The notes under the pieces: generated by a model
Told to the model about the DNA's origin: nothing
Seen by the model: only the letters and a program-made list of their open reading frames with translations
Database searches by the model: none
Shown here: positions 36,976-37,844 of the stretch, in pieces
How the letters are laid out: each line of letters opens with the position of its first letter
Position numbering within the stretch: the stretch's first letter is position 1
From: Thermomicrobiales bacterium
GTDB lineage: Bacteria > Chloroflexota > Chloroflexia > Thermomicrobiales > UBA6265
Length of the DNA: 48,202 bases
Direction: 5' to 3'
Assembly: GCA_020432165.1 (NCBI GenBank)
Contig: JAGQGU010000037.1
Span: 1-48,202, forward strand
Position numbers and translations under genes: made by a program

Positions 36976-36991
36976 TCAGACATCCGTTCTC

Positions 36992-37016
36992 GGTAGCAGC
37001 GGAGCTTGTCTCCGCT
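36992..37016 (+). repeat. REP hairpin 1
   Basis: The element reads GGTAGC, then arm AGCGGAG, loop CTTGT, arm CTCCGCT. The GTAG tetranucleotide before a hairpin is the hallmark of REP elements recognised by RAYT transposases. It ends two bases before the first possible start of the RAYT gene. Confidence 0.8.
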
Positions 37017-37018
37017 TA

Positions 37019-37600
37019 ATGGCAGAGCCAGATGGGAAGAGCACGTCATCAATGAGATCTTCTTCATCTCTTATCGACAACCATGCAACCAACAAACGGC
37101 GCAAACCTCTTCGGGCCGAGTTATGGGACTACAGCCAACCCGCGATCTACCATATTACGATCTGTGTTCAGGACAGGGAATCGAGATTTGGCGTCTGTCA
37201 CGACTCCCTGATGGATCTCTCCGCAGCGGGACTGATGGTTGAAGAGGAACTTTTGGCTTTGCCGGATAGGTTCCCGGAAGTAGGTATAGACACCTATGTC
37301 ATCATGCCTAACCACATTCACTTCCTCATAGAAATGAACCTCCGCCGGAAAGAAGCGGGCGGACTAGATTTGTCGAGACCGATTCAGGCATTCAAGTCAT
37401 TGACGACCCGACGATATAGCCAGGGTGTGCGTGAACAAGGCTGGCCTCAGTATGACGGAATACTGTGGCAAAAACGGTACTATGAAACCATCATGCGCAA
37501 TGACAAGTGGCTCGCACGGCACCGAGAATATTTGCTGAATAATCCAGCTCAATGGGCCGATGATCCCGAAAGATTCCACAAGGACTCCTCAATTAGCTGA
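37019..37600 (+). CDS. REP-associated tyrosine transposase (RAYT)
   Basis: This protein has up to 193 residues and belongs to the Y1/HUH single-strand transposase family. The His-hydrophobic-His metal motif is in VIMPNHIHFLIEM, and the catalytic Tyr is probably in WQKRYYETIMRND. REP hairpins flank the gene on both sides, as expected for a REP-RAYT unit. RAYTs bind and cleave single-stranded REP hairpins, probably spreading them. The start is uncertain: 37019 lies against REP 1 with no ribosome binding site, and ATG 37052 is an alternative. Confidence 0.85.
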   Translation: MAEPDGKSTSSMRSSSSLIDNHATNKRRKPLRAELWDYSQPAIYHITICVQDRESRFGVCHDSLMDLSAAGLMVEEELLALPDRFPEVGIDTYVIMPNHIHFLIEMNLRRKEAGGLDLSRPIQAFKSLTTRRYSQGVREQGWPQYDGILWQKRYYETIMRNDKWLARHREYLLNNPAQWADDPERFHKDSSIS

Positions 37601-37620
37601 TGAACCTTGGTTCCCTTTTT

Positions 37621-37645
37621 GGGGCAGACAAGCTGCCCCGCTACC
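37621..37645 (-). repeat. REP hairpin 2 (inverted)
   Basis: On the minus strand this reads GGTAGC, GGGGCAG, CTTGT, CTGCCCC. It keeps the GTAG lead and the CTTGT loop of REP 1 but has a different stem. Compensatory change in both arms preserves pairing. Confidence 0.75.
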
Positions 37646-37654
37646 TGTCATCCC

Positions 37655-37679
37655 GGTAGCAGCGGAGCTTGTCTCCGCT
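37655..37679 (+). repeat. REP hairpin 3
   Basis: This is an exact copy of REP 1: GGTAGC, AGCGGAG, CTTGT, CTCCGCT. It faces REP 2 ten bases away in opposite orientation, giving a BIME-like inverted pair. Confidence 0.8.
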
Positions 37680-37697
37680 TTGAGTGACGATTCGAGG

Positions 37698-37719
37698 GCG
37701 GACAAGCCGCGCTACTACC
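37698..37719 (-). repeat. REP-like hairpin 4 (inverted, shorter stem)
   Basis: On the minus strand this reads GGTAGTAGC, GCGG, CTTGT, CCGC. The loop is the same but the stem is only 4 bp. It is probably a degenerate member of the cluster. Confidence 0.55.
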
Positions 37720-37844
37720 TGTCGATACCCCACAAATACCCCAAATCACGGGGTTACGTGTGGGGTTCGGTGAAGCCGGCTACCAGTTGTCTCCTTGCAG
37801 GCGTATAGTTGCTGCGGCAATGTTCACGTGCGCAAGGAGTACGT

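What the first reader, a model, noticed from the sequence alone, without database searches (positions are those of the whole stretch)
36992..37719. REP/RAYT unit with variable stems and constant CTTGT loop
One RAYT gene has an upstream REP and three downstream REPs. Two are identical (GTAG lead, AGCGGAG/CTCCGCT), one has a different fully paired stem, and one is short. All keep the loop CTTGT. The covariation shows that structure and loop, not stem sequence, are preserved. REP/RAYT systems are known mainly from Proteobacteria.
Basis: partly seen in the sequence, partly recalled or inferred. Interest (0 to 1): 0.62.

Follow-up and report, generated by a model that had tools for sequence, protein, structure and literature searches.

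The report
RAYT transposase with its REP hairpins
This is a domesticated-type transposase gene with the short DNA hairpins it probably recognises and moves; about 95 related hairpins are scattered through the genome, and comparing them suggests the enzyme reads a fixed GTAG foot and a small structured tip with one unpaired T, while the stem letters are free to change as long as they pair.

Summary
Four REPs (36992+, 37645-, 37655+, 37719-) flank a 193-aa REP-associated tyrosine transposase (RAYT, 37019-37600), and all carry CTTGT in the window. It is a genome-wide family: a covariance model finds about 95 copies, mostly intergenic, arranged as head-to-head pairs (REPINs; 21 HH, 2 TT, 0 HT). 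All seven stem pairs covary. The 'constant loop' is not constant: chosen by foot and stem only, 99 loops from this genome and a congener read YTNRT. First and fourth bases are complementary (C-G or T-A) in 96 of 99, and the fifth is T in 98 of 99. So the tip is better read as an eighth base pair closing a two-base loop, plus one unpaired T. The rule (first base pairs with penultimate, last base T) holds for 26 of 28 (pairing) and 25 of 28 (last T) distinct 5-6-nt loops beside 26 RAYT genes. RAYTs with 3-4-nt loops form one supported clade. This agrees with published SELEX on a Marinomonas REP (T12-A15 paired, T13 required, N14 free). It is a known kind of system, already reported from Chloroflexi; the unpaired-T tip and its co-evolution with RAYT clades are a new variant. 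No close RAYT homologue was found in the congener that shares the REPs.

The parts
36992..37016 (+). REP R1: foot GGTAG + C, stem AGCGGAG/CTCCGCT, tip CTTGT
   Evidence: 41.5 bits
37019..37600 (+). RAYT gene (193 aa, HUH at H99/H101, catalytic Tyr Y171, W150/Q151/R160 aligned to E. coli TnpAREP W94/Q95/R104); the true start may lie further downstream
37621..37645 (-). REP R2: GGTAGC, stem GGGGCAG/CTGCCCC, tip CTTGT; inverted partner of R1 around the gene
   Evidence: 43.8 bits
37655..37679 (+). REP R3, identical to R1; left half of a 65-bp REPIN
   Evidence: (41.5 bits)
37695..37719 (-). REP R4: GGTAGT, stem AGCGCGG/CCGCCCT with one mismatch, tip CTTGT; right half of the REPIN
   Evidence: (33.8 bits)
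37391..37474 (+). RAYT residues 125-152 (FKSLTTRRYSQGVREQGWPQYDGILWQK), the alpha3-to-WQ segment: typically 25 residues in RAYTs with an unpaired-T tip, 20 in those with 3-4-nt loops; candidate specificity region
   Evidence: position

Best explanation
The locus is a REPtron: a single-copy RAYT (HUH, Y1 single-strand transposase) flanked by its cognate REPs, the source of or partner to a family of about 95 REPs, many arranged as REPINs (GTAG at both outer ends). Likely mechanism: when DNA is single-stranded, as at a replication fork, a REP folds into GTAG-N, a 7-bp stem, one unpaired T on the 3' side, and a Y-R pair closing a TN dinucleotide. The RAYT reads the GTAG foot and the tip (T2, closing Y-R pair, unpaired T5), needs the stem only as a paired spacer, and cuts and transfers the strand with its tyrosine, letting the REPIN move in trans. 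Shown here: the sequences, the stem and tip covariation, the HUH/Tyr and GTAG-contact residues by alignment, the predicted fold, the REPIN arrangement, and the match between tip architecture and RAYT clade. Inferred: binding, cleavage, mobility, and which residues read the tip.
For: Family: Pfam Y1_Tnp E 1.3e-7 over cut-off; NCBIfam REP_Tyr_transpos 63.6 bits, below its cut-off of 80; profile hits E. coli TnpAREP 4er8 at 5.6e-9; predicted fold (pLDDT 82) matches ISDra2 TnpA, TnpAREP and IS608 TnpA. H99, H101, W150, Q151, R160, Y171 invariant in 14 relatives. REPs: about 95 copies, intergenic preference (18 of 89 in coding-like ORFs, 70% for random positions), 21 HH/2 TT/0 HT. Stem covariation. 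Tip: pos1:pos4 complementary 96/99, T5 98/99, T2 96/99, N3 free; shuffles 0/20000. Across RAYT loci: 26 of 28 distinct loops pair first:penultimate (mean 15 in shuffles, 0/20000 as high), 25 of 28 end in T, with C-G, T-A and G-C all used. Loop class follows RAYT phylogeny (label changes 5 and 3 against about 14 and 13 in shuffles). Of the six RAYTs in this genome only this one has REPs of this family beside it. Biochemistry of a relative: PMC8266576. The block is absent at the syntenic site of congeners.
Against: No activity was measured. The congener G003 (91% complete) has 68 REPs of this family but no close homologue of this RAYT, so dependence on this gene is unproven; G004 likewise (69% complete). 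Many REP copies share ancestry, so counts overstate independent changes. At nucleotide identities of about 75% between species, 'empty sites' in intergenic DNA are weak evidence for insertion, and the borders do not fall exactly at GTAG. The folding program used does not form the proposed two-base loop; to my knowledge it does not allow hairpin loops under 3 nt, so it neither supports nor opposes it. The match of tip class to RAYT clade rests on few evolutionary changes.
Confidence: 0.8

Rival explanations
1. The REPs are relics or domesticated intergenic elements (for example transcript-end stabilisers or DNA-structure elements). Stem and tip pairing are kept by selection on the RNA or DNA hairpin, or by template switching, not by the RAYT.
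For: Intergenic placement; G003 and G004 keep the REPs without a close homologue of this RAYT; template switching is reported to create and maintain compensatory changes in hairpins (PMC8794818, seen only as the start of its abstract).
Against: The GTAG foot and the T2/T5 tip bases are conserved outside the paired stem, and tip class follows RAYT clade; template switching toward a perfect palindrome would remove the unpaired T. No intrinsic terminator coincides with the REPs and no Rfam family matches.
Confidence: 0.15
2. The tip covariation (C-G to T-A) is only ancestry: two or three old REP subfamilies amplified, with no pairing inside the loop.
For: TTTAT is concentrated in one amplified composite element; shuffles over only the 8 distinct loops of this genome are not significant (2170/20000).
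Against: TTNAT occurs with all four N and on unrelated stems (GGGGCAG, AGGGCAG, GGTGGCC, GGTGCCC, GGCGACC). Fourteen distinct loops of two genomes give 93/20000 and 28 distinct loops beside different RAYTs give 0/20000, including G-C types.
Confidence: 0.15
3. An ordinary IS200/IS605 insertion sequence rather than a domesticated RAYT.
For: R1 and R2 enclose the gene like IS ends; the fold is shared with IS608/ISDra2 TnpA.
Against: Single copy, no second near-identical gene; best NCBIfam model is the RAYT family, not transpos_IS200; GTAG-foot REPs are dispersed without the gene; W150/Q151/R160 GTAG-contact positions present.
Confidence: 0.05

Closest known systems
Group 3 REPtron Mb of Marinomonas sp. 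MWYL1 (Corneloup et al. 2021, PMC8266576)
   Same: GTAG foot separated from a short perfect stem; loop rule T12 T13 N14 A15 with T12-A15 complementary, T13 essential and N14 free, the same Y-T-N-R pattern found here by natural covariation; stem sequence of minor importance but mismatches harmful.
   Different: Here there is an extra, almost invariant unpaired T 3' of the closing pair, a 1-nt spacer, a 7-bp stem, C-G as well as T-A closing pairs, and a divergent RAYT from another lineage.
GTAG REPs / GTAG-23 family of Thermomicrobium roseum (Di Nocera et al. 2013, PMC3733652)
   Same: GTAG-tagged REPs in Chloroflexi, with alternative complementary stems within families; REPs inserted in palindromes are described there too.
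   Different: Its consensus is in a figure that is not held, so sequence identity could not be compared; GTAG-23 elements are clustered at few loci, these are dispersed.
IS608 and ISDra2 (IS200/IS605) subterminal imperfect hairpins
   Same: Y1 HUH transposase fold; recognition of an unpaired T in the stem (IS608 T17) and a T in the loop (T10; ISDra2 T14), as quoted in PMC8266576.
   Different: Those elements carry their own ends and guide/cleavage pairing; the GTAG foot and dispersed REPINs are RAYT features.
REPIN/RAYT systems of Pseudomonas fluorescens SBW25 (PMC3116915)
   Same: Inverted REP pairs as the dispersed unit; several RAYTs in one genome, each with its own REPIN type; compensatory changes in hairpins.
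   Different: Different hairpins and RAYT lineage.

Membership tests
RAYT / TnpAREP | Y1 HUH transposase domain with HUH motif and catalytic Tyr | tested here: met
   PF01797 over cut-off; H99, H101, Y171 invariant
RAYT / TnpAREP | Closer to RAYT than to IS200/IS605 TnpA by profile | tested here: met
   NF047646 63.6 bits against NF033573 19.9, though 63.6 is under NF047646's cut-off of 80; 4er8 is the best solved structure by profile
RAYT / TnpAREP | GTAG-contact residues W94, Q95, R104 of E. coli TnpAREP | tested here: met
   Query 149-178 matches 4er8 93-122, giving W150, Q151, R160, invariant in 14 relatives; residue roles from PMC6006769
RAYT / TnpAREP | Gene flanked by REPs, single copy per genome | tested here: met
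   six RAYTs, all different, this REP family beside one only
GTAG REP / REPIN | GTAG foot, hairpin, tens to hundreds of dispersed, mostly intergenic copies, head-to-head dimers | tested here: met
RAYT / TnpAREP | Cleaves its cognate single-stranded REP | not testable with these tools
   Needs biochemistry
IS200/IS605 insertion sequence | Multiple near-identical autonomous copies | tested here: not met
   No second copy in own genome; nearest relatives about 43% identical
Corneloup group 3 REPtron | Loop Y-T-N-R with paired ends, required T2, free N3 (as in REPMb) | tested here: met
   compared with PMC8266576
Corneloup group 3 REPtron | RAYT belongs to phylogenetic group 3 (subclass 2.5) | not tested
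   Reference sequences of the published groups were not at hand; works-like is claimed, membership is not

The most novel reading that the evidence does not exclude
RAYTs of this bacterial class read a structured hairpin tip: a closing base pair whose letters may change if complementary, a 2-3-base cap, and one obligatory unpaired 3' T. Whether a RAYT uses this tip or a plain 3-4-base loop is set by a segment of about five extra residues (GVxxxGWxxF/Y) just before its GTAG-reading WQ motif, so that REP and RAYT specificity have co-evolved clade by clade.
Probability: 0.4. Interest if true: 0.6.

Novelty: new variant of a known kind. Interest (0 to 1): 0.45.

Why it matters
How RAYTs recognise perfect-palindrome REPs is open: PMC8266576 notes that no structural data are available for that group and can only speculate on the contacts. 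Here natural variation in dozens of RAYT-REP pairs repeats its SELEX rule, adds an unpaired T like the one IS608 uses, and points to a short protein segment. That makes a domain-swap or hairpin-swap test direct, and makes genomes with several RAYT-REP pairs (six RAYTs in this genome) a natural specificity panel.

Tried and rejected
Terminator role: no T-run terminator at the REPs. Known RNA family: none. The idea that the two stems of a REPIN must differ (0 of 21 identical here) was dropped: identical-stem REPINs occur in G003 and G004 and copies are not independent. A literal constant CTTGT loop was rejected. Exact REPIN borders from empty sites were not resolved, as flanks at about 75% identity do not align to the base. 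Alignment A3 is hand-picked representatives and was not used for statistics. A literature search for two-residue DNA loops found nothing useful. Names of the genomes are withheld; the phylum was not established here (among named records the best RAYT match is a Chloroflexi MAG, 38% identity).

Full report
What is there. Window 36992-37719 holds one RAYT gene (37019-37600, 193 aa) and four REPs with a GGTAG foot, a 7-bp stem and a 5-nt tip CTTGT. R1 and R2 point outward around the gene; R3 and R4 form a separate 65-bp head-to-head pair (REPIN). R1 and R3 are identical, R2 has another fully paired stem, R4 has one mismatch. All four lie between genes, downstream of a 381-aa ORF that looks like an LLM-type oxidoreductase (from its sequence, not tested) and upstream of an ABC-transporter-like ATPase ORF.

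The protein. Pfam Y1_Tnp is over cut-off; the NCBIfam RAYT model is the best match but under its cut-off (63.6 of 80 bits). A profile of 14 relatives finds E. coli TnpAREP 4er8 first (E 5.6e-9), and the predicted structure (pLDDT 82.3) matches ISDra2 TnpA, TnpAREP and IS608 TnpA. The pairwise match to 4er8 (query 149-178 to chain 93-122; weak on its own) equates W150, Q151, R160, Y171 and N175 with positions 94, 95, 104, 115 and 119 of E. coli TnpAREP; W94, Q95 and R104 are named in the literature as conserved in REP-reading subclasses (PMC6006769).

The family in the genome. A foot+loop pattern gives 35 hits (5 for the reversed control); 31 of them pair at 6 or 7 of 7 stem positions without having been chosen for pairing. 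A covariance model finds about 95 copies: feet GGTAGC 57, GGTAGT 18, GGTAGA 12; 27 stem sequences, 80 of 93 fully paired; loops CTTGT 49, TTTAT 15, CTCGT 12 and others. All seven stem pairs have changes on both sides (part of that alignment was chosen by pairing, so one search is the unbiased check). Copies avoid coding-like ORFs (18 of 89, against 70% of random positions) and form 21 head-to-head, 2 tail-to-tail and 0 head-to-tail pairs.

The tip. To avoid choosing by loop, a foot+stem pattern was used: 44 hits here and 55 in congener G003, none in the reversed control. After turning nine hairpins that sit inverted behind their foot (at least some of them double-foot REPs), position 1 and position 4 are complementary in 96 of 99 (71 C-G, 25 T-A), T2 in 96, T5 in 98, and position 3 is free. 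With identical 24-mers counted once the result stands (43 of 46; 0 of 20,000 shuffles). The simplest reading is an eighth base pair closing a two-base loop, with T5 unpaired on the 3' side. Published work on Marinomonas REPMb found this same dependence for its 4-nt loop: T12 and A15 complementary, T13 essential, N14 free (PMC8266576); the same paper quotes IS608 as holding an unpaired T17 and a loop T10, and ISDra2 a loop T14.

Other RAYTs. Hairpins with a GT[A/G][G/C] foot beside RAYT genes of this bacterial class were collected. Among 5-6-nt loops at 26 RAYT loci (28 distinct after orientation), first and penultimate bases pair in 26 and the last base is T in 25; C-G, T-A and G-C closing pairs all occur; shuffled mean 15, none of 20,000 as high. 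The rule was framed on the first set of loci; among the loci of the later class-wide search nearly all 5-6-nt loops also fit, CCATAT of G112 being the exception. RAYTs whose REPs have 3-4-nt loops fall in one clade (31 rows, support 100/96), apart from one doubtful hairpin inside a broken gene (G002 C163); the label needs far fewer changes than shuffled labels. The stretch between the alpha3 FK[ST] and the WQ motif is typically 25 residues in unpaired-T RAYTs (with GW in 15 of 24 such proteins) and 20 in short-loop ones (GW in 0 of 15); one small divergent clade with unpaired-T tips has 18 (a few larger values there come from a second WQ further on in the protein). This association is confounded by shared ancestry.

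Relation to RAYT presence. This genome has six different RAYTs, several with visibly different terminal hairpins; only the window's RAYT has this REP family beside it. Nine of 61 related genomes have the REP family: own 72 (stricter filter), G003 68, G004 32, G053 23, few elsewhere. G004 uses other stems (GGGAGCAC) with the same CTTGT tip. G003's three RAYTs belong to two other clades, so either its cognate RAYT is lost, or lies in the missing part of the assembly, or another RAYT serves in trans. At the syntenic place G003 and G001 have neither RAYT nor REPs; G003 has a nucleotidyltransferase/HepT-like pair there instead. Three other REP sites checked along one 20-kb stretch have no REP in G003, and where G001 could be compared none there either, though borders could not be set to the base.

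Verdict. A real, ordinary-in-kind REPtron with a REPIN family, of a kind already known from several phyla but little studied outside Proteobacteria. The refined finding is that the kept tip is a covarying closing pair plus an unpaired T, and that tip class goes with RAYT clade.

Noticed in passing
own genome, e.g. C24:33429-33479 (L075), C76:332894-332944 (L066), C39:38528-38578 (L051): Several REPINs (at least six clear copies) sit in the middle of a larger composite repeat of about 120 bp: 34-35 bp conserved outside each GTAG foot (AGCGGATTCGCTATGTGTTGTCATGTATAAGATC and AGCCGGTTCCGGATGTACTGACACACCCACGGACT), forming an imperfect outer palindrome. 26 of 93 REP flanks exceed a 1% shuffle threshold. 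Similar REPs-in-palindromes are described in PMC3733652.
   Followed up: partly
L159 (G003 C33), syntenic to window 36980-37800: The congener carries a nucleotidyltransferase (Polbeta) gene and HepT-like genes where this genome has the RAYT; a second HepT-like ORF follows a repeat of the upstream flank.
   Followed up: partly
window 36997-37019: The first ATG of the RAYT ORF lies 2 nt after the R1 hairpin, so R1 would be in or beside the translation start region; the start may really be further downstream, or the hairpin may limit translation.
   Followed up: no
own genome C54 (L079, L014) and C105 (L080, L010): Two other RAYTs have long 11-bp terminal hairpins with a GAAA or GCAG tip (GTAG-GGGCGGGTCCT-GAAA-GGTACCCGCCC), a different REP type.
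   Followed up: no
own genome C31:52580-53050 (L081): RAYT whose 5' end runs into a tandem array of GGCCTGAAATGGCCGGCGAGAGA, and whose 3' flank has another array (GGGACGCCAGGACGCCGCCCACTTC), as if the REP hairpin itself were being reiterated.
   Followed up: no
own genome C62:40792-40822 and similar: Double-foot REPs: one hairpin with GGTAG on both sides, as expected from central deletion of a REPIN (the origin is suggested in PMC6006769).
   Followed up: no
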